A stretch of DNA of 64,000 bases from Niabella soli DSM 19437 (GTDB lineage: Bacteria > Bacteroidota > Bacteroidia > Chitinophagales > Chitinophagaceae): the NCBI RefSeq assembly GCF_000243115.2, contig NZ_CP007035.1, forward strand, positions 3,286,001 through 3,350,000, given 5' to 3'. A program made the position numbers and the translations under genes. Positions 53,994-64,000 of the stretch are shown here, piece by piece (position 1 is the first letter of the stretch; each line of letters opens with the position of its first letter). The notes beneath the pieces were generated by a model. The model ran no database searches. It had not been told where the DNA came from and saw only the letters and a program-made list of their open reading frames with translations.

Positions 53994-54701
53994 CTAATTC
54001 AGGCACTGAAATACTATCGCGGCCAGCACCGCACCGATAATTGGCCCCACAATGGGCACCCAGGCATAGCCCCAATCGCTGGGCCCCTTTTTTCCAATAG
54101 GCAAAATAGCATGCATCAGCCGGGGACCAAAATCCCTCACCGGATTGATGGCATAACCCGTAGGGCCACCGAGGCTTAAGCCAATGCCCAGCACAATAAA
54201 CGCTACAGGTAATGCATCCAGGGCCCCCAGGCTATTTGCCGGCGCAATAATAAACAGTACCGTCAGGATCAGGATAAAGGTTCCGATCAATTCCGTAAGC
54301 ATATTATTCAAAGGGCTGCGGATCGCCGGTGCCGTGCTAAAAGTAGCCAGTTTCAGGCCCGTATCATCGGTAGCTAAGTAATGTTGCCGGTAGGCCAGCC
54401 AAACACCTGCCTGGCCCAGCATCGCGCCCAGCAGTTGCCCACCAAGGTATTGCGGAATTGTATTGCTGTTAATTTTCCCTAACCAGGCCAGCGCCACAGT
54501 TACGGCGGGGTTCAGATGGGCGCCGCTTGCTTTTGAGGAAACAAACACGCCTACAAAAACAGCCATCGCCCAGCCAAAAGTGATCACGATCCAGCCGCTG
54601 CTGTTTCCCTTGGTCTTATTTAAGACCACGTTCGCTACCACCCCATTCCCCAGGATAATGAGCAAAAAGGTTCCAACCAATTCTCCGGTAAAAATATTCA
54701 T
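53994..54701 (-). CDS. glpF: Glycerol facilitator (aquaglyceroporin, MIP family)
   Basis: This 235-residue inner-membrane channel lets glycerol diffuse into the cell. Both half-helix motifs are visible: N64-P-A66 in SGAHLNPAVTVAL and N186-P-V188-R-D190 in GYAINPVRDFGPRL. The aspartate after the second motif (NPxRD) is typical of glycerol-conducting members rather than water-only aquaporins. Six hydrophobic segments fit the family. The glycerol kinase gene lies 112 bases upstream on the same strand, which supports glycerol as the substrate. Confidence 0.94.
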   Translation of the reverse strand: MNIFTGELVGTFLLIILGNGVVANVVLNKTKGNSSGWIVITFGWAMAVFVGVFVSSKASGAHLNPAVTVALAWLGKINSNTIPQYLGGQLLGAMLGQAGVWLAYRQHYLATDDTGLKLATFSTAPAIRSPLNNMLTELIGTFILILTVLFIIAPANSLGALDALPVAFIVLGIGLSLGGPTGYAINPVRDFGPRLMHAILPIGKKGPSDWGYAWVPIVGPIIGAVLAAIVFQCLN

Positions 54702-54813
54702 ATAAAATTCGTTTATCGTTTGAAGTTTTTTGTTTGAGGTTAGCCTCCGTGTATTCTATACCTTATCGTTTTCGTTTTGAAGTCTGTTATTTTGACGTTT
54801 TCAACTTCAAACA

Positions 54814-56310
54814 TCAGACTTCTTCCGTCCAGGCCTGGGCTGCTTTTACCGCACGCTTCCAGCCTCTTGTTAATTGTTCGCGCACCTCCTCCGTCATATA
54901 CGGTTCAAATGCCTGGTCTACCTGCCAGTACCGTTCCACTTCTTTTATGTCATTCCAGAAACCTATTGCCAGGCCGCTAAGATATGCAGCGCCTAAAGCC
55001 GTGGTTTCCGTGATCTTCGGCCGCACCACTTTTGTATCCAGCAAATTCGCCTGGAACTGCATCAGGTAATTGTTCACCGTAGCGCCGCCATCCACCCGTA
55101 CTTCTTTGATTGAAATACCGGAATCCGCTTCCATCGCCTTCAATACGTCCATGGTCTGGTAGGCGATGCTCTCTACCGCCGCCCGCGCAATATGCCCGTC
55201 GGAGCTGCCCCTGGTAAGACCGGTGATCATTCCCCGCGCATGCTGGTTCCAATAAGGCGCCCCCAGCCCGGTAAAAGCGGGCACCATGTACACGCCGCCA
55301 TTATCGGGCTCCGTTGCCGTTAGCGCTTCTATATCCCCCGATTTTTGAATCAGCTTCAATCCATCGCGTAGCCACTGCACCACCGCTCCTGCAATAAATA
55401 CACTGCCTTCCAGCGCGTAGCTCACTTCATCATTTATCTTCCAGGCGATGGTCGTTAACAAATTATTTTCAGACGGCACCGGCTTGGCTCCTGTATTCAT
55501 CAGCATAAAACACCCCGTACCATACGTATTTTTCACCATTCCGGACTGAGTGCACATTTGACCGAATAACGCTGCCTGCTGATCTCCGGCAATACCGCTC
55601 ACCGGAATTTTTGCTCCTGTTAAAACCATATCCGTATGACCGTACACCTCGCTGCTGGAACGCACTTCGGGCATCATGCTTAACGGGATGCCAAATAATT
55701 CCAGCAATTCCTTATCCCACTCCAGTGTATGAATATTGTAGGCCATGGTGCGCGATGCATTGCTGACGTCGGTTGCATGCACCTGGCCGTTGGTCAGTTT
55801 CCATAACAACCAGGAATCAACCGTTCCAAAACACAATTCGCCTTTTTCGGCCCGCTCCCTTGCCCCTTCTACGTTTTCAAGGATCCACCGGATCTTTGTT
55901 GCCGAAAAATAGGCATCGGTCACCAACCCTGTTTTTGCTTTTATGGGTGCCGAATGTCCTTCCTGCTTCAACGCATCACAATAGTCGGAGGTACGTCGAT
56001 CCTGCCATACGATGGCATTATAAACGGGTTGTGACGTAGCGCGATCCCATACAACCGTTGTTTCCCGTTGATTGGTAATGCCAATGCAGGCAATGTCGGC
56101 AGCGCTTAGCCCCGCCTTCACAATGGCTTCGGCAGCCACCCCTAACTGGGTCGACCATATTTCATTGGCGTCGTGCTCCACCCAACCGGGCTTCGGAAAG
56201 ATCTGTGTAAACTCTTTTTGCGCTACGGCAACAATTGTTCCGGACTTATCGAAAACAATAGCGCGGGAACTGGTGGTACCTGCATCGAAAGAGAGAATGT
56301 ACTTTGGCAT
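54814..56310 (-). CDS. glpK: Glycerol kinase
   Basis: This FGGY-family kinase phosphorylates glycerol to sn-glycerol 3-phosphate with ATP, trapping glycerol that enters through GlpF. Landmarks are the N-terminal phosphate loop [18 protein letters not shown], the substrate region [31 protein letters not shown], and the C-terminal nucleotide block [20 protein letters not shown]. The start is ATG at 56310 (MPKYILSF, 498 residues); the frame is open to 56316 but only with TTG. It lies between the phosphoesterase gene and glpF, all on the minus strand. Confidence 0.96.
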
Positions 56311-56449
56311 AGTCAACCGTTTATTTGAATTTTAAAATTAAATCCTATCGTTTCCTGTTTATAAACAGGAAGAAAGAGTGCATCAATATAAAACAAAATA
56401 TTTCATTCTACGCAATTGCAATCCTTCGCCGGGGCAAAAATTGTGCCCG

Positions 56450-58153
56450 TCATTTCATTGATACGGTTAAAGCCTTGGGCCGTGTCATCGTTTCCGTATA
56501 AACATTCCCAAACCGGTCTGTTACCTTTATCAATACCGGCGAAGTGGGGCTTACGGCCGCAGCTTTAAACAGGTGCGCCGATGTTGTGGTACAAAAATCG
56601 CTTGTGGGCGTTGCCCCGGCGTTCAGCCGCAGCGCCTCGTAAGAAATAATATGCAGCGGATCTTTCACCTTTACACGTGTAACAGCCAGCGGCATTGTTC
56701 CGTTTTCGAACAATTCCACTTTCCAGCGTTTATCGTACCCCCAAACGTTCACCAAAATTTCGTTACCGGTATTTTTTACAGCATACGCGTCTACATAATC
56801 CGCCAAAAGTGCATCGGTGGTTTTGGGTGCATAGTTAGCAGCCGTAATATGAACCAGGTTCATATCATAAGCCCTGAACTGGTACTGCTCCTCATACCCG
56901 ATTGCTTTATATAACCACTGATACCCGGTGTTATTAAATTTCCAGATGGCATAACCTCCCGGGGCGCCGTCTTTACAGATCTGATTGCCGGCATAACCGC
57001 TTTTGCCGGTCCACCACCAGGTAGCGCAAACAGCGCCGGAGTTATGCTCCATCAGCGTTGGTGAATTTTCATAAGCATAACAGATATGGGTATGCCCGGT
57101 TAATACATTTACATTGCTGAACCCGGAGAAACAGTCGATCAATGCTGATGCGTTGGTCAAATTCAGCGCTGCGGTTTCCGAAGCTGACGGGTTACCGTTT
57201 AAATGGATGTGCATGGCCAGAACAACAGGGGCCGACTTATCAGAAAGGGTTGCCAGGTCCTTTTTTAACCACGCCAACTGGTCTGCGACGATGGTTTCAT
57301 TGTAGGACCGGTCGCCCAAAGTGCCCTGAGCGCCTCCTTTATTTACATACTCAATATTATCTAAAACAACATAATGTACTTTTCCAAGGTTGAACGAATA
57401 ATAGGTGGGGCCCAGTGAAGCTCTGAAAGCGGCTTCTGCGGGCCAATCGGCGGCCACATAGGGGTCATTATCATGATTGCCCATGGTATGGAAGACCGGT
57501 ATATTTATGTTTTTCATTACAGACAGGTATTCAGCAAAGCTGTATTTGTTCGCATACCAGTAAGCATCCCAGGTCATGTCGCCCAGTGTAAGTCCGTACA
57601 CTTTGTACCCTTGCTGCCGGTAGCGATCGATGGTTGCCTTTGCATCCGGCAAAAAGCCGTTTTGAAACTGGGCAATATCATCGTTCCGGTTGGCCAGGTG
57701 CAGATCGCCAATTGCCAGCACTACATGCTTATCATTGTCTGTTTTTGTTACTGTAAAGTTTATTGTTTCCACCACGGATGCATCGGCTCCAAATGCCTGG
57801 TAAAAAACCGGGAGTATGGTATTGCCAGCGCTCACCTCATAGCCGCCGGGTACGGAAATAAAAACAAATTTTTTTGTTTTTGCGGAAGGAAGATAATAAC
57901 TGCCGTCTTTGCCAGTAGTAGTAACCGCCACCCCATCTGATACCACCACACCCGGCACGCCCGCACCGGCACAGGTAACCCGCCCTTTAACCGTCATGCC
58001 GGCTACATCAGGCAGGGCGCCGCTTTCATTGCCGGAAGTTTCCGTTCCCGGTCCGGCAGCACTCCCTTTACTACACCCCCCGGCAGCCAACCCTGCACCG
58101 GCCATTGCGCCGGAAACAAGAAAGGCCCTCCTTGAAATCGTTCTGCTTTTCAT
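56450..58153 (-). CDS. TAT-exported calcineurin-like phosphoesterase, three-domain lipoprotein
   Basis: The 567-residue protein begins with a twin-arginine signal (RTISRRAFLVSGAMAGAG) and a lipobox cysteine at C27, so it is likely exported folded and lipid-anchored. An N-terminal carboxypeptidase-D-like domain follows (about 53-135). The metallophosphatase core has D150-x-H152 (AIGDLHLAN), G191-D192, G226-N-H228-D229, and later histidines in LAMHIHLNG and VLTGHTHICY, which together bind two metals. A C-terminal beta domain (about 420-560) matches the calcineurin-phosphoesterase C-terminal type. It would remove phosphate from a phosphomonoester or cleave a phosphodiester. It lies 13 bases after the GDPD gene, so the two probably act in sequence. 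Confidence 0.9.
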   Translation of the reverse strand: MKSRTISRRAFLVSGAMAGAGLAAGGCSKGSAAGPGTETSGNESGALPDVAGMTVKGRVTCAGAGVPGVVVSDGVAVTTTGKDGSYYLPSAKTKKFVFISVPGGYEVSAGNTILPVFYQAFGADASVVETINFTVTKTDNDKHVVLAIGDLHLANRNDDIAQFQNGFLPDAKATIDRYRQQGYKVYGLTLGDMTWDAYWYANKYSFAEYLSVMKNINIPVFHTMGNHDNDPYVAADWPAEAAFRASLGPTYYSFNLGKVHYVVLDNIEYVNKGGAQGTLGDRSYNETIVADQLAWLKKDLATLSDKSAPVVLAMHIHLNGNPSASETAALNLTNASALIDCFSGFSNVNVLTGHTHICYAYENSPTLMEHNSGAVCATWWWTGKSGYAGNQICKDGAPGGYAIWKFNNTGYQWLYKAIGYEEQYQFRAYDMNLVHITAANYAPKTTDALLADYVDAYAVKNTGNEILVNVWGYDKRWKVELFENGTMPLAVTRVKVKDPLHIISYEALRLNAGATPTSDFCTTTSAHLFKAAAVSPTSPVLIKVTDRFGNVYTETMTRPKALTVSMK

Positions 58154-58166
58154 ACGGGGGATGACA

Positions 58167-59078
58167 TTATTTCAACTGGTAAAACAAATCGGGATAATCG
58201 GTAATAATGCCATCCACACCCATATCGGCTAGCTTTTTAATTGTGGGCAAATCATTCACCGTCCAGGGTACTATTTTGATGTTGCGCTGATGACACTCTT
58301 TTACCAGCTCTGGTGTTACAATGGCATAATGCGGACTATAATATGCCGGCGTATAACCCAGGGCCTCCAATTGTTCAGCCAACGGGCGCTTTTCTTTATC
58401 ATCCACTAAATAAGAAGTTTGCACCTGTGGGTATTTTTGATGCATTATTTTTAATGCCCGCACATCAAAACACTGGATAATAAGCCGTTTGCCAATATTA
58501 AACGGCAGGAGGGTTTGCATAGCCAGGTCTGTGAATTCCGCCACGGGCGGGCTGGTAACGCCATCACCTTTGGGGCTGGATTTAATTTCAATATTATATT
58601 GAATGGCGATGTCTTTCTTTTTAGCATAGGCCTCTGTGGTGGTGAGCAGCTCTTTTAACAGCGGCTTTACTGCGGCCATTTTTTTCTGGCGGGGCTCTGC
58701 CGGATAGAACTTTTTGCCTACATCATATTTTTTAATCGAATCGTAGGTCATGGTGTACAGGATCCGCTTTTTTGACTCCGCAGGGGTGAGGGTATCGCCC
58801 TCCGGTGTGGTGGTAAACCCGTAATTAAATGTAGCGTCGTGCGATACGATAACCTGTTTGTCCTTTGTTACCTGCATATCCATCTCCAGGGTGGTAACCC
58901 CCATATCTATGGCGTTCAGCATGGCAGGGATCGTATTTTCCGGCATCAGTCCGCGGCCACCGCGGTGCGCTTCCATATCCAGGTTTTTATAGGTTGGCGG
59001 AAGCTGGATTTTCTTTTGCCCGTACCCGGCCATTGTTACGGCCAGCAGAAGCGCGACGCTAAAAATTGTTTTTTTCAT
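58167..59078 (-). CDS. Periplasmic glycerophosphodiester phosphodiesterase
   Basis: The enzyme hydrolyses glycerophosphodiesters such as glycerophosphocholine or glycerophosphoethanolamine to glycerol 3-phosphate and the alcohol. The 303-residue protein has a signal peptide (MKKTIFSVALLLAVTMAGYG). The GDPD site is complete: H38-R39 with E47-N-T (AHRGGRGLMPENT), metal ligands E65 and D67 (LEMDMQ), and H80 (VIVSHD). ADMGVDGIITDYPDLF closes the barrel as usual. It is followed after 13 bases by the phosphoesterase and preceded by a 281-base gap that contains a repeat and may hold its own promoter. Confidence 0.94.
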   Translation of the reverse strand: MKKTIFSVALLLAVTMAGYGQKKIQLPPTYKNLDMEAHRGGRGLMPENTIPAMLNAIDMGVTTLEMDMQVTKDKQVIVSHDATFNYGFTTTPEGDTLTPAESKKRILYTMTYDSIKKYDVGKKFYPAEPRQKKMAAVKPLLKELLTTTEAYAKKKDIAIQYNIEIKSSPKGDGVTSPPVAEFTDLAMQTLLPFNIGKRLIIQCFDVRALKIMHQKYPQVQTSYLVDDKEKRPLAEQLEALGYTPAYYSPHYAIVTPELVKECHQRNIKIVPWTVNDLPTIKKLADMGVDGIITDYPDLFYQLK

Positions 59079-59234
59079 TTGGTACTATTCATTATTTATG
59101 ACATTGAAAGAAAGATCTGTTCGTCTGAGATCCCAATAAAAGAATTTAAGTTCTTTGAAACGACAAGTTATTATTCGTCGCCTCGTGTTATTTATTTGCG
59201 TTACGAAAACAATGTGTTCATAACATAATATTCT

Positions 59235-59346
59235 TTCGTCACCCTGACCGGCGTTCGGACGGGGGTCTCTCACTTCCCGGGCAGTCCGGCATCACAGGGA
59301 TGCCTCGGCTCTCCCGATAAATCGGGATTGCGCCCGGCATGACGAA
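59235..59346. repeat. Palindromic intergenic repeat inside the glycerophosphodiester locus
   Basis: It starts TTCGTCACCCTGACCGG and ends CCGGCATGACGAA, with a TTCGTCA/TGACGAA terminal inverted repeat. CCCGATAAATCGGG forms an internal hairpin. It is the only sizeable gene-free stretch between the SGNH and GDPD genes and is a MITE-like unit. The rest of the 59079-59359 gap shows nothing I can support. Confidence 0.55.
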
Positions 59347-59359
59347 TGTATAATTGCAT

Positions 59360-60052
59360 TTATAAATACTTTCCGTCTTTTAAAATTTTTGACCACAGTT
59401 TATATCCGTTAATATTCAGATGCAGGCCGTCATAAGTAAGATCTTTGTTCAGCTTACCGTCCTTTAGAAAATGCGGGTGCAGATCGATGACGGTTATCGC
59501 CTCATCCTTGCCCAGTTTCTTAAGCCCTTCATTTACGGCGGCTATATGTTCATCTTTCCCGTAATGACCTTTTTTGGGCGGAATATCTGCGTTCACAGGA
59601 AGCACGGTCTGAAAATAGATTTTTGTAGCCGGGCTTTCCTTTTTGATCTGGCGGATGATGCGTTTATAGTTATTTAAGATCACTGCATCCGGAACATTGC
59701 GGGAGATATCATTAGTGCCGATCAGAATAAAGACCTTTTGCGGCTTGCCTTCCGTAACCTCGTGCAGGCGCTCCAGCACACCAAAAGTGATGTCGCCGCT
59801 GATGCCCCGGTTCTTGCATTCGGGGTTTTGAAATAACTCTTCCCAGTCGATACCGGCAGTAATACTGTTACCCAAAAAGATAATATCTTTTGACGAATTG
59901 GGAAAGGCATTAAACTGGTCCACCCGCAATTTATAACTGCCCGGGCGGTAAGTGCTGTCCCAGGCAGGGGATTGGGCGTTGCTTCCGACGGCGCTAAACA
60001 CACAGGCCAGGATAAGGCCTGTGTGTAAGGTTTTTTTTAATTTAAGTTTCAT
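59360..60052 (-). CDS. Secreted SGNH/GDSL esterase
   Basis: This 230-residue exported hydrolase has the four SGNH blocks: S63 nucleophile in IIFLGNSITAG, G86 in NRGISGDIT, N114 in LIGTNDISR, and D208-x2-H211 in YDGLHLNINGY. It resembles the platelet-activating-factor acetylhydrolase branch, which removes short acyl groups from lipids or sugars. In this operon a deacylation step before the phosphodiesterase is plausible. It lies eight bases after the DUF5689 gene. Confidence 0.9.
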   Translation of the reverse strand: MKLKLKKTLHTGLILACVFSAVGSNAQSPAWDSTYRPGSYKLRVDQFNAFPNSSKDIIFLGNSITAGIDWEELFQNPECKNRGISGDITFGVLERLHEVTEGKPQKVFILIGTNDISRNVPDAVILNNYKRIIRQIKKESPATKIYFQTVLPVNADIPPKKGHYGKDEHIAAVNEGLKKLGKDEAITVIDLHPHFLKDGKLNKDLTYDGLHLNINGYKLWSKILKDGKYL

Positions 60053-60059
60053 TGATTAT

Positions 60060-61694
60060 TTATTCTACTATTCTTGTAATAAGCGAATCATTGGGACCGC
60101 CACGGCCCGGTTCTATATCGGCAATGGTAGCCGCAGTGTGGGTATCGTCTGTTGCCTGAAATAATTCTATTGGTGTCTGCTTCCTTGCGCTGGTCCACCG
60201 ATGCAAGGTAATATTATAAACCCCTCCCATCATATTGAACAACCCGGCATCAGTAGCCGCAACCGGGTGCGCCGCATTTATCGCATAGGGCATATTAGTG
60301 GTATTACCTGGTGAGCGATAATACAGATAGGGCAGAATCACCGGCTTGTAGGTGCTTTGATCAATACCCACTGAGAACATAGAATACCAGTCGTTATTAC
60401 AGATCCGGTAACCCAGTATCGGGTTTTTGGAAGGATCGTAAATAGAAGTGGTTCCGCCGGAAGCTACAAATAACACGTCTTCCGGAACTGATTTCTCGTT
60501 AACTGTGGTCCCTTTAAACAAGGCGACACCGCAGGTGTTCCCGCTATTCGGAAAGGGGCCGCTGGTTGAAAAGGCACTTGCGCGGAACAAGCCGCCATCA
60601 CCCTTATTGGTAGCGCTGGTTGAATAGGTCTTTTGATACCAATTCGTTCCTGCCGGGAAAGAAACCGTACCCGCATTGCCATTGATTTTTTTGCCCTGGA
60701 AACCGAAGTAAAAGAATTGCCCTTTTAATACAGAGCCAGATGTAATGTTCCACTTAATAGTCCGCTGTCCTCCGGTGGCCCAACCGTTATCCAGCGCAGG
60801 GGTAGACGCGCCAGGGTTGGCACAGAAAACAATGCTGTAGGGTGTTACAGCGAAGTTGATGTCTTTGGTGGCGATCATCTGCACGTATTCGTTACCACCA
60901 TCGCCGCCCTTGGGATCGCCCATGAATCCGGAAATAAGGAGGTCCTGTTCAGAAGATCCCATATTCACTATGTCATCTGCATCTCTTGTTCTTAATTGTA
61001 TCGATCCCTTTTCCGTAGCAAAAGGTATTCCTACATAAGCCGCTAAACTGAATGGGGCATTATTAGCATAACTTACGCTGGGATCGGTATAAAGTGTCAG
61101 ATCGGCAAAACCATCATTAATTGTTTTAACGCCGCCGATTCCCTCCCCGGCCGGTAATGTGGGATTGAAGCTGGATTTATTAACGATACACAGGGAACTT
61201 TCGTAATTGTTAGGATTCGCCAGCAGCTCTGCTGTGGTTATCGCATTTGTGTTGACTTGTCCTTTTCCCTTGGATTCAATTTTAGCGTCTGTTACACCAA
61301 CAATAGTTAAAATGCCGTTCTTTCTGGTTAAAGTAGCGCCGTCAATATTGATCATTAACGAATCCCCCGGGTGGTAATTAGCGGCAGTGGCGCCCAGGTC
61401 TATGGCAATGCCCCGTAACATATTAAGGCGGCGGCTGTCCTGCACTACCAGCAATCCATCCGGGATATTTTTTTCAGTGTGATCCGATATTACCACCGCA
61501 GCCAGCCGGGCGCCGCCATACAGCAGGTCCTTAGTAAGCGTTACATCCTGGCCGTTGTACAGCAAGCGTACATCCAGGGCGGAAATTACATCGTAGGGCA
61601 CTCCGCCCGGATAATTTTCGTAGGTATTTTTGGTGCAACTGTTGATTGCTGCAGCTATGCTTAACACCAAAAGGAGATTGAATATATGTTTCAT
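60060..61694 (-). CDS. DUF5689-domain surface lipoprotein
   Basis: The 544-residue product from ATG 61694 has a lipoprotein signal (LSIAAAINSC, C20) and a DUF5689 region in its N-terminal half (VPYDVISALDVRLLYNGQDV, VVISDHTEKNIPDGLLVVQD). OB-fold-like strands follow (GDSLMINIDGATLTRKNGIL), and the C-terminal half is unassigned and Gly/Asn/Ser rich. These proteins usually sit beside SusC/SusD and are thought to be surface binding accessories. The longer frame to 61748 overlaps susD and gives no signal peptide. Confidence 0.82.
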   Translation of the reverse strand: MKHIFNLLLVLSIAAAINSCTKNTYENYPGGVPYDVISALDVRLLYNGQDVTLTKDLLYGGARLAAVVISDHTEKNIPDGLLVVQDSRRLNMLRGIAIDLGATAANYHPGDSLMINIDGATLTRKNGILTIVGVTDAKIESKGKGQVNTNAITTAELLANPNNYESSLCIVNKSSFNPTLPAGEGIGGVKTINDGFADLTLYTDPSVSYANNAPFSLAAYVGIPFATEKGSIQLRTRDADDIVNMGSSEQDLLISGFMGDPKGGDGGNEYVQMIATKDINFAVTPYSIVFCANPGASTPALDNGWATGGQRTIKWNITSGSVLKGQFFYFGFQGKKINGNAGTVSFPAGTNWYQKTYSTSATNKGDGGLFRASAFSTSGPFPNSGNTCGVALFKGTTVNEKSVPEDVLFVASGGTTSIYDPSKNPILGYRICNNDWYSMFSVGIDQSTYKPVILPYLYYRSPGNTTNMPYAINAAHPVAATDAGLFNMMGGVYNITLHRWTSARKQTPIELFQATDDTHTAATIADIEPGRGGPNDSLITRIVE

Positions 61695-61729
61695 CAGTAA
61701 CTTTTTTATAGATTCTTTAATACTAGCCC

Positions 61730-63301
61730 TTAAGGCTTCTGCCACCATACGTTGGTATTGATCTGATCCGGACCCTGGGCGGCAACAGCCGTTTTATAAT
61801 TGGTGGGATTGGCAGATTGTACATAAACAGGATACACCAAACGGGCTGGCATTACACCGCCATTTTGCAAGCCGGGCAATTCAGATAAATGCAGGTTTGG
61901 ATAGCCTGTACGCCGGTATTCAAACCATTGCTGCAGATCCGTCAGGAACAGCGCGTAGTATTTTTGCCCATGTATCAACTCCATTTTCCGGTCAAAAGAG
62001 AGGTCATTGCTCCAAACAACACTACCGGCAGCCAGGTTATCAAGATGATCCGCAAATTCGGAAGAAGTGATGTCCTCCGGAAAATTGGGAACCCAGTAGT
62101 TAATAGCGGAAGCAATACCCTGATAAAAATAATCTCTGGGGTTGCCGCCGATCCAACCTTTTAATGCTGCTTCGGCCAGTATAAACTGTACTTCTGCATA
62201 TTGCATTATGATCCCTGTCCAGGGGTTCTGCTGTAATGACCATACGCCGCCGGTGCTTTTATCGTCATAACTTTGAAAATAACAACCCTTGGGATCGGCA
62301 TGGCCGGGAATGTACCCGCTTGATACCCCGCGCCAACCGCCGCCGCTGGCCTGTGCAATACCCAGGCGGCCAATGCTTCCCGACCCATACGGTTTGGCAG
62401 AAGTAATTCTTGGGTCGGTCCAGGTAATCAAACTATCCAAAAAATAGCTGCAGATTGCCGGTGTCCTGAAATCCTGCACCCGCACGTTATACACATAGGG
62501 CGAAGTATAAGGGTCCGTACTGCTGGTTTGCCCGGTCCAAAGCACCCTGGCACAATCGGCGTTGGAGGTCATGATGGGGTAAGTTGCAGGATCCTGAACA
62601 ATTTGTTTTATCTTATCCTGGCATTGCTGCGCCACCTCGGCCTTTCCTGATATGCGGAGCAGCAATCTTAAGTACAAAGAGTTTCCGAATTTTCTCCATT
62701 TTGAAAGATCTCCGTTATAAACCGGGTCACTTGTTACAACAATGGCCTGGTTTTTAGCCAGCAACTCATTTGCCTCTTCCAGTTTTTTAAACAGGCTTTG
62801 ATAAATGTCCTTCTGCCGGTCAAAAACGGGTTGCACATTTCCTTCCTTGCCCTGAAGCGCTTCCGTGTAGGGAATATCGCCATAAGTGTCCGTTAAATTC
62901 GCAAATACCCACGCTTCACAGATCCGGGCAATACCCTGGTAAGAAGTATTAATGCTATCACCGCTGCTTGACAGGCTGTCCACACTTCTGAAGTTGGTGA
63001 GCTGCACATACCAGGCATTCCATAAATAATCGGACTGGCTGGCCCTGAAAGCATAGCGGAATACTGTATTTTCCCCGTCGCTGATGCTAACCGTAACCTG
63101 CATCAGTTCATTTGTAAAGCTCCGGTTCCTTGTCATGCCCGGCCAAAGAGCATTTACCAGCGCAGGCGCCAGTATCTGGCTGGAGGAAGTGTGCAGGATA
63201 TTAATGGGATCTATATTTAGCTTTTCGAATCCTTTTTTGCAGGAGTACATTGCTGACACCAACAACAATAATAAGGAGCCGATAAAAAATTGTTTTTTCA
63301 T
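61730..63301 (-). CDS. SusD-like lipoprotein (SusD_2 type)
   Basis: This 523-residue surface lipoprotein has its lipobox cysteine at C21 (VSAMYSC). The sequence FEKLNIDPINILHTSSSQIL is the signature start of the SusD-like group 2, and FAEHLD-type C-terminal residues with DLQQWFEYRRTGYPNL also match this group. It is clearly different from the two SusD proteins at 6-15 kb. It lies between the SusC gene and the DUF5689 gene and would bind the substrate on the cell surface. Confidence 0.92.
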   Translation of the reverse strand: MKKQFFIGSLLLLLVSAMYSCKKGFEKLNIDPINILHTSSSQILAPALVNALWPGMTRNRSFTNELMQVTVSISDGENTVFRYAFRASQSDYLWNAWYVQLTNFRSVDSLSSSGDSINTSYQGIARICEAWVFANLTDTYGDIPYTEALQGKEGNVQPVFDRQKDIYQSLFKKLEEANELLAKNQAIVVTSDPVYNGDLSKWRKFGNSLYLRLLLRISGKAEVAQQCQDKIKQIVQDPATYPIMTSNADCARVLWTGQTSSTDPYTSPYVYNVRVQDFRTPAICSYFLDSLITWTDPRITSAKPYGSGSIGRLGIAQASGGGWRGVSSGYIPGHADPKGCYFQSYDDKSTGGVWSLQQNPWTGIIMQYAEVQFILAEAALKGWIGGNPRDYFYQGIASAINYWVPNFPEDITSSEFADHLDNLAAGSVVWSNDLSFDRKMELIHGQKYYALFLTDLQQWFEYRRTGYPNLHLSELPGLQNGGVMPARLVYPVYVQSANPTNYKTAVAAQGPDQINTNVWWQKP

Positions 63302-63338
63302 GTGTATTTTTTATTGATTTTGGTCACATGGAATTTTG

Positions 63339-63388
63339 TATAAAAATTTTCATCGCCTTGCGCATGAATTTGCTCGAAAATTTTTATA
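63339..63388 (-). promoter_or_regulatory. Inverted repeat in the susC-susD gap
   Basis: Perfect 13-bp arms TATAAAAATTTTC (63339-63351) and GAAAATTTTTATA (63376-63388) lie in the 107-base gap between susC and susD. It could set the susD to susC mRNA ratio, but the AT-rich stem may be weak. Confidence 0.5.
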
Positions 63389-63408
63389 GTCATTTCATAT
63401 TAAAAGAA

Positions 63409-64000
63409 TTAAAGTCCGATAGATAAATTAAAACCAACACTGCGTGTAGACGGAAACTGGCCTACCTCAAACCCTCTTACGATATCTGATCCGCTGAGGG
63501 TACCAAATTCAGGATCAAAAATTGGCCAGGGCGACCAGATGAACAGATCACGCCCGTAAATACCAAGGGTGGCTGTTTTTAGTCCGACCTTCTTCAACAG
63601 TTTTGCGTTGAAAGAATAATAGAGCGTGGCTTCCCGGAATTTAATAAAATCGGTACTGAACGTACTTCCTTCTGCGTTAAGGGATCCCATACTGTTTTGA
63701 TAGTACTGATCCACGTCATAGGCCACCACATCATTTTTGCGATAACCGGTAACCTCGCCTTTATCATTCAGCACTTCCAACACGCCATTGCCAATAATGC
63801 CATTATAACGACCCGGCAATGTGACAGCCAATTTACCCTGTTCCACCATTTTATAGTGGGTCAGCGAATAGGCTACAGCGCCGGCCTGTGCATCAAACAA
63901 TAGTTTTAAACTAAATTGCTTATACCGGAAATTGTTACCCAGGCTCACTTTATACTTGGGTGTTGTATTGCCTAAATAAATAATATTGCTGGTGATTTTA
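63409..64000 (-). CDS. SusC-family TonB-linked transporter, C-terminal part
   Basis: The coding frame is open across the right edge and ends at 63409; only the last 197 codons are present. The C-terminal SusC barrel is recognisable: GNNFRYKQFSLKLLFDAQAG, FIKFREATLYYSFNAKLLKK, LGIYGRDLFIWSPWPIFDPE, then GTLSGSDIVRGFEVGQFPST and a final strand GFNLSIGL. It is the transporter of the glycerophosphodiester locus. The rest, including any STN domain, lies outside the window. Confidence 0.93.
   Translation of the reverse strand, partial: KITSNIIYLGNTTPKYKVSLGNNFRYKQFSLKLLFDAQAGAVAYSLTHYKMVEQGKLAVTLPGRYNGIIGNGVLEVLNDKGEVTGYRKNDVVAYDVDQYYQNSMGSLNAEGSTFSTDFIKFREATLYYSFNAKLLKKVGLKTATLGIYGRDLFIWSPWPIFDPEFGTLSGSDIVRGFEVGQFPSTRSVGFNLSIGL

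What the first reader, a model, noticed from the sequence alone, without database searches (positions are those of the whole stretch)
53994..64000. PUL-like locus for scavenging glycerophosphodiesters
All on one strand: SusC, SusD-like, DUF5689 lipoprotein, SGNH esterase, glycerophosphodiester phosphodiesterase, calcineurin-type phosphoesterase, glycerol kinase and glycerol facilitator. Catalytic residues are intact in every enzyme. The order supports a full path: capture, deacylation, cleavage to glycerol 3-phosphate, release of phosphate, glycerol uptake and rephosphorylation. SusCD systems are best known for glycans; a phospholipid or teichoic-acid-like substrate would be less usual. The function is inference.
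Basis: partly seen in the sequence, partly recalled or inferred. Interest (0 to 1): 0.75.

Follow-up and report, generated by a model that had tools for sequence, protein, structure and literature searches.

The report
Glycerol-phosphate scavenging operon with outer-membrane importer
A soil bacterium carries a nutrient-import machine of the type normally used for sugars inside its glycerol-phosphate operon, and relatives show the same link many times over, which suggests it harvests the backbone of phospholipids or related glycerol-phosphate compounds.

Summary
Beyond base 64000 the same strand continues into full-length SusC and glpD, with a divergent DeoR/GlpR-type regulator. The unit is glpR | glpD-susC-susD-DUF5689-SGNH-GDPD-metallophosphoesterase-glpK-glpF, about 14.5 kb.

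- GDPD or this phosphoesterase lies near 19 of 30 loci of this SusD clade and 0 of 20 control SusD loci; counting any phosphoesterase type sought, 20 of 30 against 5 of 20.
- GlpT is rare: 3 of 147 Chitinophagaceae genomes, all three in such SusCD-glp clusters. All four GlpT genes of the Pedobacter family in a class-wide sample lie near this SusD.
- An operator learned at glpR-glpD recurs about 195 bp before susC in 14 of 34 clade loci lacking adjacent glp or anti-sigma genes, and in 0 of 41 anti-sigma-wired loci.

Not everything fits. 23 of 109 clade loci have neither such enzymes nor glp genes, including 9 of 10 close, complete non-Niabella ones. Deacylation and phosphate release are weakly supported. 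Exact substrate unknown. Closest known: Pi-induced PUS clusters of Flavobacterium; the GlpR wiring appears to be a new variant.

The parts
53994..54701 (-). glpF, glycerol facilitator (MIP family)
   Evidence: PF00230 138 bits; TIGR00861 168.4 bits, just under its cut-off of 171.25
54814..56310 (-). glpK, glycerol kinase (ATG start 56310)
   Evidence: NF000756 832 bits and TIGR01311 745 bits, both over cut-off
56450..58153 (-). secreted metallophosphoesterase (RR-containing, lipoprotein-like leader), phosphodiesterase or phosphatase
   Evidence: PF16371+PF00149+PF16370; alignment; predicted fold near Rv0805, purple acid phosphatases and GpdQ (model)
58167..59078 (-). periplasmic glycerophosphodiester phosphodiesterase (GDPD/GlpQ-like)
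   Evidence: PF03009 135.9 bits; PDB 3ch0 E 1e-73; conserved residues
59360..60052 (-). secreted SGNH/GDSL esterase
   Evidence: PF13472; PDB 6njc and 7pzg E 4e-51 and 5e-51
60060..61694 (-). DUF5689 surface lipoprotein, probably a non-catalytic binding partner
   Evidence: PF18942; found in 30/30 and 79/79 clade loci, 1/11 sister loci, 0/20 controls; predicted OB-like plus lamin-tail-like parts at weak scores
61730..63301 (-). SusD-like lipoprotein (PF12771)
   Evidence: PF12771 324 bits
63409..64000 (-). SusC TonB-dependent transporter, C-terminal part; the whole gene (1091 aa) runs to 66684 in window numbering. Further parts outside the window (same numbering): glpD 66936-68531 (-), two predicted operator sites 68552-68571 and 68585-68604, DeoR/GlpR-type regulator 68674-69453 (+)
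   Evidence: TIGR04056 544 bits for the whole gene; glpD and regulator; operator sites:

Best explanation
A GlpR-controlled catabolic operon with its own outer-membrane importer for glycerophosphodiester-type compounds (phospholipid headgroup esters or short glycerol-phosphate polymers). SusCD with the DUF5689 lipoprotein captures the substrate and moves it through the outer membrane (inferred from family). In the periplasm GDPD cuts the diester to glycerol 3-phosphate, with help from the SGNH esterase and the metallophosphoesterase (inferred). This genome has no GlpT over cut-off, so the phosphate is probably removed in the periplasm by the metallophosphoesterase or by PafA, and glycerol enters through GlpF, is rephosphorylated by GlpK and oxidised by GlpD; relatives with GlpT would take G3P up directly. 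The DeoR-type regulator next to glpD represses the operon until G3P appears (inferred from family and conserved operator). Shown: gene content, order, conservation, GlpT location, shared operator motif. Not shown: transport, substrate, enzyme activities, transcription, regulator binding.
For: Same strand continues into glpD, with a divergent GlpR-type gene. Related clusters with glp genes in Chitinophagaceae and Sphingobacteriaceae. Enrichment over control SusD loci: GDPD or this phosphoesterase 19/30 vs 0/20 (p 2e-6); any phosphoesterase type sought 20/30 vs 5/20 (p 0.009); glp genes 12/30 vs 1/20 (p 0.008). GlpT: 3 of 3 in the Chitinophagaceae sample in such clusters (in G049 the SusD is of the 38% sister group), 4 of 4 in family f41 within 7 kb of the SusD. 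Phosphoesterase, SGNH and GDPD also sit in glp operons without SusCD (L180, L182). Operator PWM from glpR-glpD regions found before susC in 14/34 plain clade loci, 0/41 anti-sigma loci; Markov shuffles 0.15%. In two Pedobacter genomes the intergenic exact matches of the operator core are at glpR-glpD and susC. PafA present and GlpT absent in the own genome.
Against: 8 of 30 Chitinophagaceae and 22 of 79 named clade loci (15 of 79 by the broad count) have neither enzyme nor glp genes nearby, including nine of ten close, complete non-Niabella ones. Outside the two families none of 11 fetched relatives has glp genes beside it. Other Niabella clusters lack the phosphoesterase, and L053 lacks SGNH and GDPD too. 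SGNH resembles a sugar O-acetylesterase. No expression or biochemistry. Operators of DeoR-family paralogues may look alike; the 14 operator loci are all Pedobacter and related; the exact core does not hit glpR-glpD in this genome or in N. pedocola, and genome-wide it is not clearly commoner than a reversed control (18 against 14 in four genomes). Own susC has no strong site of its own, so control would need read-through from glpD across 251 bp.
Confidence: 0.7

Rival explanations
1. It is a phosphate-acquisition cluster of the PUS kind: SusCD imports organic phosphorus so that phosphatases release phosphate, and glycerol use is a by-product.
For: SusCD with phosphodiesterases or phosphomonoesterases is the PUS layout of Flavobacterium johnsoniae (passages of PMC8115612); PafA is present in this genome.
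Against: The regulator beside it is GlpR-like, with glpD, glpK and glpF on the same strand as susCD, and the operator motif is shared between glpD and susC in relatives. The SusD belongs to PF12771, not to the PusD1/PusD2 Pfams pf07980/pf14322. Phosphate response was not tested.
Confidence: 0.2
2. The SusCD-DUF5689 pair imports an unrelated glycan or glycolipid and only happens to lie in the glp operon in some lineages; some loci carry glycosidases.
For: Clade loci without such enzymes or glp genes (8/30 and 15-22/79). GH36 in L050, GH89 in L130, and GH92 next to this locus. SGNH close to a deposited sialate O-acetylesterase.
Against: GDPD/phosphoesterase and GlpT co-locate far above control SusD loci. 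The glp label needs at least 13 changes on the SusD tree, so it was not one chance insertion. The glycosidases seen are scattered and differ from locus to locus; glycosidases were not counted systematically.
Confidence: 0.15
3. The substrate is a glycerol-phosphate polymer (teichoic-acid-like or capsular), possibly glycosylated or acylated, rather than small phospholipid headgroup esters (a sub-case of the best explanation).
For: SusCD systems typically take oligomers (established knowledge). GDPD plus esterase plus occasional GH36/GH89 would suit substituted poly(glycerol phosphate) (the match to teichoic acid substituents is recalled).
Against: No endo-acting surface enzyme recognised in the own cluster. 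PLD-like genes in L058 and L157 point as well to phospholipids.
Confidence: 0.2

Closest known systems
PUS (phosphate utilisation system) clusters with PusCD, Flavobacterium johnsoniae (PMC8115612, passages seen)
   Same: SusC/SusD-type importer beside periplasmic phosphodiesterases or phosphomonoesterases instead of CAZymes; organic phosphorus substrate proposed.
   Different: PUS are defined by strong induction under phosphate depletion. Here the unit carries glpD, glpK and glpF and a GlpR-type regulator and operator; SusD is of another Pfam family than PusD1/PusD2; the enzymes are GDPD, MetallophosN/C and SGNH rather than pf16670, pf00149 or PhoA.
glp regulon of E. coli (glpTQ, glpFK, glpD, GlpR; recalled)
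   Same: GDPD (GlpQ-like), GlpF, GlpK, GlpD and a DeoR-family regulator; some relatives add GlpT near GDPD.
   Different: A TonB-dependent SusCD-DUF5689 importer lies in the same unit; no GlpT over cut-off in this genome.
Polysaccharide utilisation loci (PULs)
   Same: Tandem susC-susD, further surface lipoprotein, secreted enzymes in one unit.
   Different: No CAZyme recognised in the unit; regulator is cytoplasmic GlpR-like, not anti-sigma/ECF or hybrid two-component.
B. thetaiotaomicron BT4724-25 / BT4727 (PMC10434189, table lines seen)
   Same: A TonB receptor and RagB/SusD pair listed two locus numbers away from a GDPD gene.
   Different: Listed there among iron-responsive genes; no glp linkage in the passages seen; sequences not compared here.

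Membership tests
PUS / PusCD | SusC/SusD pair co-located with phosphomono- or diesterases | tested here: met
PUS / PusCD | Induction by phosphate depletion | not testable with these tools
   no expression data
PUS / PusCD | SusD of the PusD1/PusD2 Pfam type (pf07980, pf14322), for PUSI and PUSII | tested here: not met
   PF12771 324 bits; PF14322 22.6 bits, under its cut-off of 27; pf07980 not listed; PusD Pfams (PusD is described there as polyphyletic)
glp regulon | glycerol kinase GlpK | tested here: met
   TIGR01311 745 of 590 bits
glp regulon | glycerol facilitator GlpF | tested here: met
   PF00230 138 bits; TIGR00861 slightly under cut-off
glp regulon | FAD-dependent G3P dehydrogenase GlpD | tested here: inconclusive
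   best match is G3P dehydrogenase, under the NCBIfam cut-off; DAO and DAO_C over cut-off
glp regulon | DeoR-family GlpR beside the genes | tested here: inconclusive
   DeoR family certain; best NCBIfam is AgaR under cut-off, GlpR models lower
glp regulon | shared operator | tested here: inconclusive
   two predicted sites at glpR-glpD in this genome, none strong before its susC; same motif before susC in 14 of 34 plain clade loci of relatives; binding not tested
glp regulon | G3P transporter GlpT | tested here: not met
   no match over cut-off in the own genome; present in some relatives' clusters
PUL | susC-susD pair | tested here: met
PUL | carbohydrate-active enzyme in the unit | tested here: not met
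   none among the unit's genes; a GH92 gene lies beyond glpR, outside the unit
PUL | ECF sigma/anti-sigma or hybrid sensor next to susCD | tested here: not met
   ECF/anti-sigma genes are present in other clade loci

The most novel reading that the evidence does not exclude
A SusCD-DUF5689 importer clade that bacteria repeatedly switch between surface (ECF/anti-sigma) control and glycerol-3-phosphate (GlpR) control, used to eat glycerol-phosphate polymers such as teichoic acids, i.e. a utilisation locus for a phosphate-backbone polymer rather than a polysaccharide.
Probability: 0.2. Interest if true: 0.8.

Novelty: new variant of a known kind. Interest (0 to 1): 0.6.

Why it matters
SusCD systems are a hallmark outer-membrane importer of Bacteroidota and are usually read as glycan systems. 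A large clade (Chitinophagaceae and Sphingobacteriaceae) tied to GlpR, GlpD, GlpT and GDPD would suggest that phospholipid debris or glycerol-phosphate polymers are an actively imported carbon source for soil Bacteroidota, and would give a sequence rule (SusD clade, DUF5689, glp operator) for guessing the substrate of many unassigned SusCD pairs. It also gives a natural series of regulatory rewiring: an N-terminal extension of SusC (90 residues or more before the CarbopepD-like domain) is present in 35 of 41 anti-sigma-wired loci, 1 of 28 glp-wired ones and 0 of 14 operator-bearing ones.

Tried and rejected
Chance neighbourhood: rejected, because control SusD loci from the same search rarely carry these genes. 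My first control count (2 of 20) used HMMs built from the clade's own genes and was too kind: Pfam on selected control genes showed a GDPD and a purple-acid-type phosphoesterase in L096 and a PF04185 phosphoesterase in L081; a recount with those as extra queries on both sets gives 5 of 20. L094 also has GDPD-glpK-glpF at its left edge, only glpF being within the counted distance. Single ancestral insertion of SusCD into glp: rejected by the SusD tree, where the glp label needs at least 13 changes over well-supported branches (quick method, SH-aLRT only; gain or loss not resolved). Reading the calcineurin-type enzyme firmly as a phosphatase: not kept (mean pLDDT only 73). DUF5689 as an enzyme: no PDB sequence hit and only weak OB-like and lamin-tail-like fold matches, so a binding role is inferred. 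The viral structure library was uninformative. STN domain in the long SusC proteins: Pfam lists it in 1 of 4 extended proteins tried, below cut-off, so only the extension is claimed. A paper search for the AgaR/DeoR operator gave nothing useful in its listing; the likeness of my motif to the E. coli AgaR consensus is recalled. Operator near DUF6528 (L004 8373): one exact core match, but core matches per genome are not clearly more frequent than the reversed control, so not claimed. Papers: no description of a GlpR-linked SusCD seen in the listings of searches (open-licence PMC only; one search listed 15 of 324; passages read in three papers).

Selection and dropped rows: of the list I fetched 40 of the 41 places at 37% identity or more other than the own one (G095:C643, a partial hit, was left; the split G102:C2 gene counts once) and, as controls, 20 of the lower ones (30-36%), one of them a second SusD of the own genome; the list itself was cut. 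L164 gave no SusD in my ORF set (79 of 80 counted). 15 named loci were left out of the tree (125 of 140 rows). 5 of 33 glpR-glpD regions were left out of motif training as near-copies. Of the 38 places I fetched 20. L042 and L058 overlap on one contig. By equal contig lengths L040/L133, L043/L175, L157/L235, L152/L236, L147/L237 and L156/L239 are the same loci in two collections. Loci are related, so Fisher p-values are optimistic.
Full report
1. What is there. The window is base 3286001-3350000 of a single 4.70-Mb contig. Reading past the window end (L004) gives full SusC, then glpD on the same strand, then a divergent DeoR/GlpR-type regulator. In window numbering SusC runs to 66684, glpD is 66936-68531 and the regulator 68674-69453. 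The unit is therefore glpR | glpD-susC-susD-DUF5689-SGNH-GDPD-metallophosphoesterase-glpK-glpF. That it is one transcript is inferred. Gaps over 100 bp are susC-glpD (251), SGNH-GDPD (281), glpK-phosphoesterase (139), glpF-glpK (112) and susD-susC (107). The SGNH-GDPD gap is partly filled by a dispersed repeat with 15 matches in the genome, itself included. Leaders: GDPD and SGNH carry signal peptides, SusD and DUF5689 lipoprotein signals, and the phosphoesterase an RR-containing lipoprotein-like leader (judged by eye from the sequence).

2. Enzymes. GDPD aligns along its length with PDB 3ch0 (E 1e-73), and the residues named in the observation check are invariant in 11 relatives. The phosphoesterase has the MetallophosN/Metallophos/MetallophosC architecture also found in the three relatives checked, L046, L112 and L119. 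It is only 25-34% identical to 21 relatives. Its predicted fold (mean pLDDT 73) is nearest to Rv0805 (recalled as a cyclic nucleotide phosphodiesterase), purple acid phosphatases and the glycerophosphodiesterase GpdQ, so monoesterase or diesterase cannot be decided. SGNH is nearest to 6njc/7pzg, deposited as sialate O-acetylesterase / lysophospholipase L1. The DUF5689 model (mean pLDDT 87) shows OB-like and lamin-tail-like parts at weak scores, and it has no PDB sequence relative at E 1 or better.

3. Neighbourhood test in the family. SusD was searched in 147 Chitinophagaceae genomes; 110 have a match at E 1e-20. I fetched 60 loci and annotated them with the window's proteins and HMMs built from them. 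In the clade at 45% identity or more (30 loci with the own one), within 8.5 kb: DUF5689 30, metallophosphoesterase 17, GDPD 11, SGNH 6, any glp gene 12, any of GDPD/phosphoesterase/PF01663-type 20, FecR-type anti-sigma 10, neither phospho enzyme nor glp 8. Among 11 sister loci (37-39%): 7 with a phospho enzyme, 1 with glp genes. Among 20 control loci (30-36%): 2 with a phospho enzyme, 1 with a glp gene. Because these HMMs favour the clade, I recounted both sets with extra queries (other GDPD, purple-acid type, PF04185, PF01663, EEP, PLD): clade 20 of 30, sister 8 of 11, control 5 of 20, p 0.009; for GDPD or this phosphoesterase alone 19 of 30 against 0 of 20, p 2e-6 (L096 among the controls does hold a GDPD domain by Pfam). 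For glp genes p is 0.008. In the 30 loci glp genes and FecR never occur together (0 of 12 glp loci, 10 of 18 others).

4. Named relatives. Of 79 counted: DUF5689 79, metallophosphoesterase 49, GDPD 43, SGNH 29, GlpT 10, any glp gene 20, FecR 34, glp and FecR together 3, neither phospho nor glp 22 (15 by the broad count). A frequent Pedobacter form is glpF-glpK-glpD | glpR-susC-susD-DUF5689-phosphoesterase-GDPD-glpT-SGNH (e.g. L120, L130, L146, L169; L120's record is titled Flavobacteriaceae). Against the simple picture: of ten close, complete non-Niabella loci (L039-L041, L102-L108) nine are anti-sigma-wired and free of these enzymes, L108 being the exception, and all six other Niabella or same-genus loci (L038, L053, L098-L101) lack the phosphoesterase. 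Scattered extra genes are PLD-like (L058, L157), GH36 (L050), GH89 (L130), EEP phosphodiesterases (L128, L134), PF01663 (L068) and DUF6528 (L099, L136).

5. Class-wide sample. With a profile of the clade's SusD 31 of 395 Bacteroidia genomes match at E 1e-80. Of 20 further loci fetched 9 are in family f41 and 11 in other families. In f41, 4 of 9 are glp-linked; outside, 0 of 11. Four of the nine f41 loci (L235, L236, L237, L239) are also in the named set, judged by equal contig lengths with Pedobacter records, so f41 is taken as Sphingobacteriaceae.

6. GlpT as an independent marker. The gene between glpD and susC in L050 passes the GlpT equivalog cut-off (728.7 of 632.55). GlpT occurs in 3 of 147 family genomes at E 1e-150, and all three copies lie between glpD and susC of such clusters; in one of the three (G049) the SusD is of the sister group (38%) and DUF5689 was not found. 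In the class-wide sample it occurs in 10 of 395 genomes. All 4 in f41 lie within 7 kb of this SusD. The other six are in other families; five of them lie beside a weakly matching GDPD and four beside glpD, and no SusCD shows in the 1.5-kb flanks. The own genome lacks GlpT (best 49 bits) but has PafA (784 of 650 bits), so dephosphorylation before uptake through GlpF is the likely route here. Growth tests in the PafA paper included glycerol phosphates among the substrates (passages of PMC8812569).

7. GlpD side. 92 GlpD matches in 89 of 147 genomes. Of the 17 most similar to the own GlpD (62% identity or more, the own included), 12 lie in clusters with this SusCD or, in G049, its sister. Of the 5 others, three (L179, L180, L182) carry GDPD and, in two, phosphoesterase and SGNH, without the clade SusCD; two (L181, L183) carry no GDPD or phosphoesterase. 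Among 15 ordinary GlpD loci (54-58% identity) 14 have glpK and 13 glpF; none has the clade SusD; one has a phosphoesterase and a PF01663-type gene (L195) and one a GDPD several kb away (L198).

8. Operator. A motif learned by EM (150 starting seeds) from 28 glpR-glpD regions reads NGTTTCGTTTTNTTNCNTTT. The own locus has two sites there; the next best in 18 kb is 9.9. Scanned on susC upstream regions, the motif scores 16 or more in 14 of 34 plain clade loci (these susC regions were not used in training; all 14 are Pedobacter), in 1 of 32 glp loci and in 0 of 41 anti-sigma loci; Markov shuffles give 0.15% for the plain set. The aligned upstream regions show the site as one of the best-conserved blocks, about 195 bp before susC. 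In two Pedobacter genomes the exact core has 7 and 6 matches (2 and 6 for the reversed control). The intergenic ones are glpR-glpD in each genome, plus susC once in one genome and twice in front of the same susC in the other; the rest lie inside open frames. In the own genome (3 matches, control 2) and in N. pedocola (2, control 4) none is at glpR-glpD, whose sites there deviate from the core. So the signal is in position, not in number. Caveats: related loci, and possible cross-talk with other DeoR-family regulators.

9. Evolution. On a SusD tree of 125 loci the glp label (30 rows) needs 19 changes, at least 13 over well-supported branches, against a shuffled mean of 27. Wiring also goes with an N-terminal SusC extension: 35 of 41 anti-sigma loci, 1 of 28 glp, 0 of 14 operator-bearing, 4 of 20 other plain, 3 of 3 with both.

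10. Known or new. The closest described systems are the PUS clusters, whose PusCD lie with phosphodiesterases and monoesterases and are induced by phosphate depletion (passages of PMC8115612). This locus shares the layout but differs in SusD family, enzymes and regulator. The listings of searches showed no paper describing a SusCD joined to glp genes; subscription papers are not covered. Verdict: a well-supported new variant of a known kind, with the exact substrate open.

Noticed in passing
window 59190-59360: The gap between the SGNH and GDPD genes holds a dispersed repeat with 15 matches in the genome, itself included.
   Followed up: partly
L004 7471-10724 (window numbering 69471-72724): Just beyond glpR lie a DUF6528 gene and a GH92 glycosidase gene; DUF6528 genes also sit inside related glp clusters (L099, L100, L136) and beside glpD in L194, so it may belong to the system.
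   Followed up: partly
L004 10856-12427: A gene of the GH3 Pfam family whose best NCBIfam match is lyso-ornithine lipid synthetase OlsH (413.7 of 620 bits, under cut-off); a GH3-family gene also neighbours the cluster in same-genus loci L038 and L053.
   Followed up: no
L128, L134, L135, L139, L173: Sphingobacterium/Pedobacter members of the SusD clade that are anti-sigma-wired have EEP-type phosphodiesterase genes nearby (Pfam-confirmed in L128 and L134; the others by phmmer), hinting at another phosphodiester substrate.
   Followed up: partly
L068, L069, L073, L076: Part of the sister SusD group (37-39% identity) has PF01663-type phosphodiesterase genes beside it (Pfam-confirmed in L068), so a phosphodiester substrate may be older than the glp link.
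   Followed up: partly
L257, L258, L260, L262: In other Bacteroidia families GlpT sits with glpD and a distant GDPD and no SusCD in the short flanks, a glpTQ-like arrangement.
   Followed up: partly
L096 (control locus): A distant SusCD pair (31% identity) is followed directly by a GDPD-domain protein and a purple-acid-type phosphoesterase, perhaps an independent phosphodiester locus.
   Followed up: no
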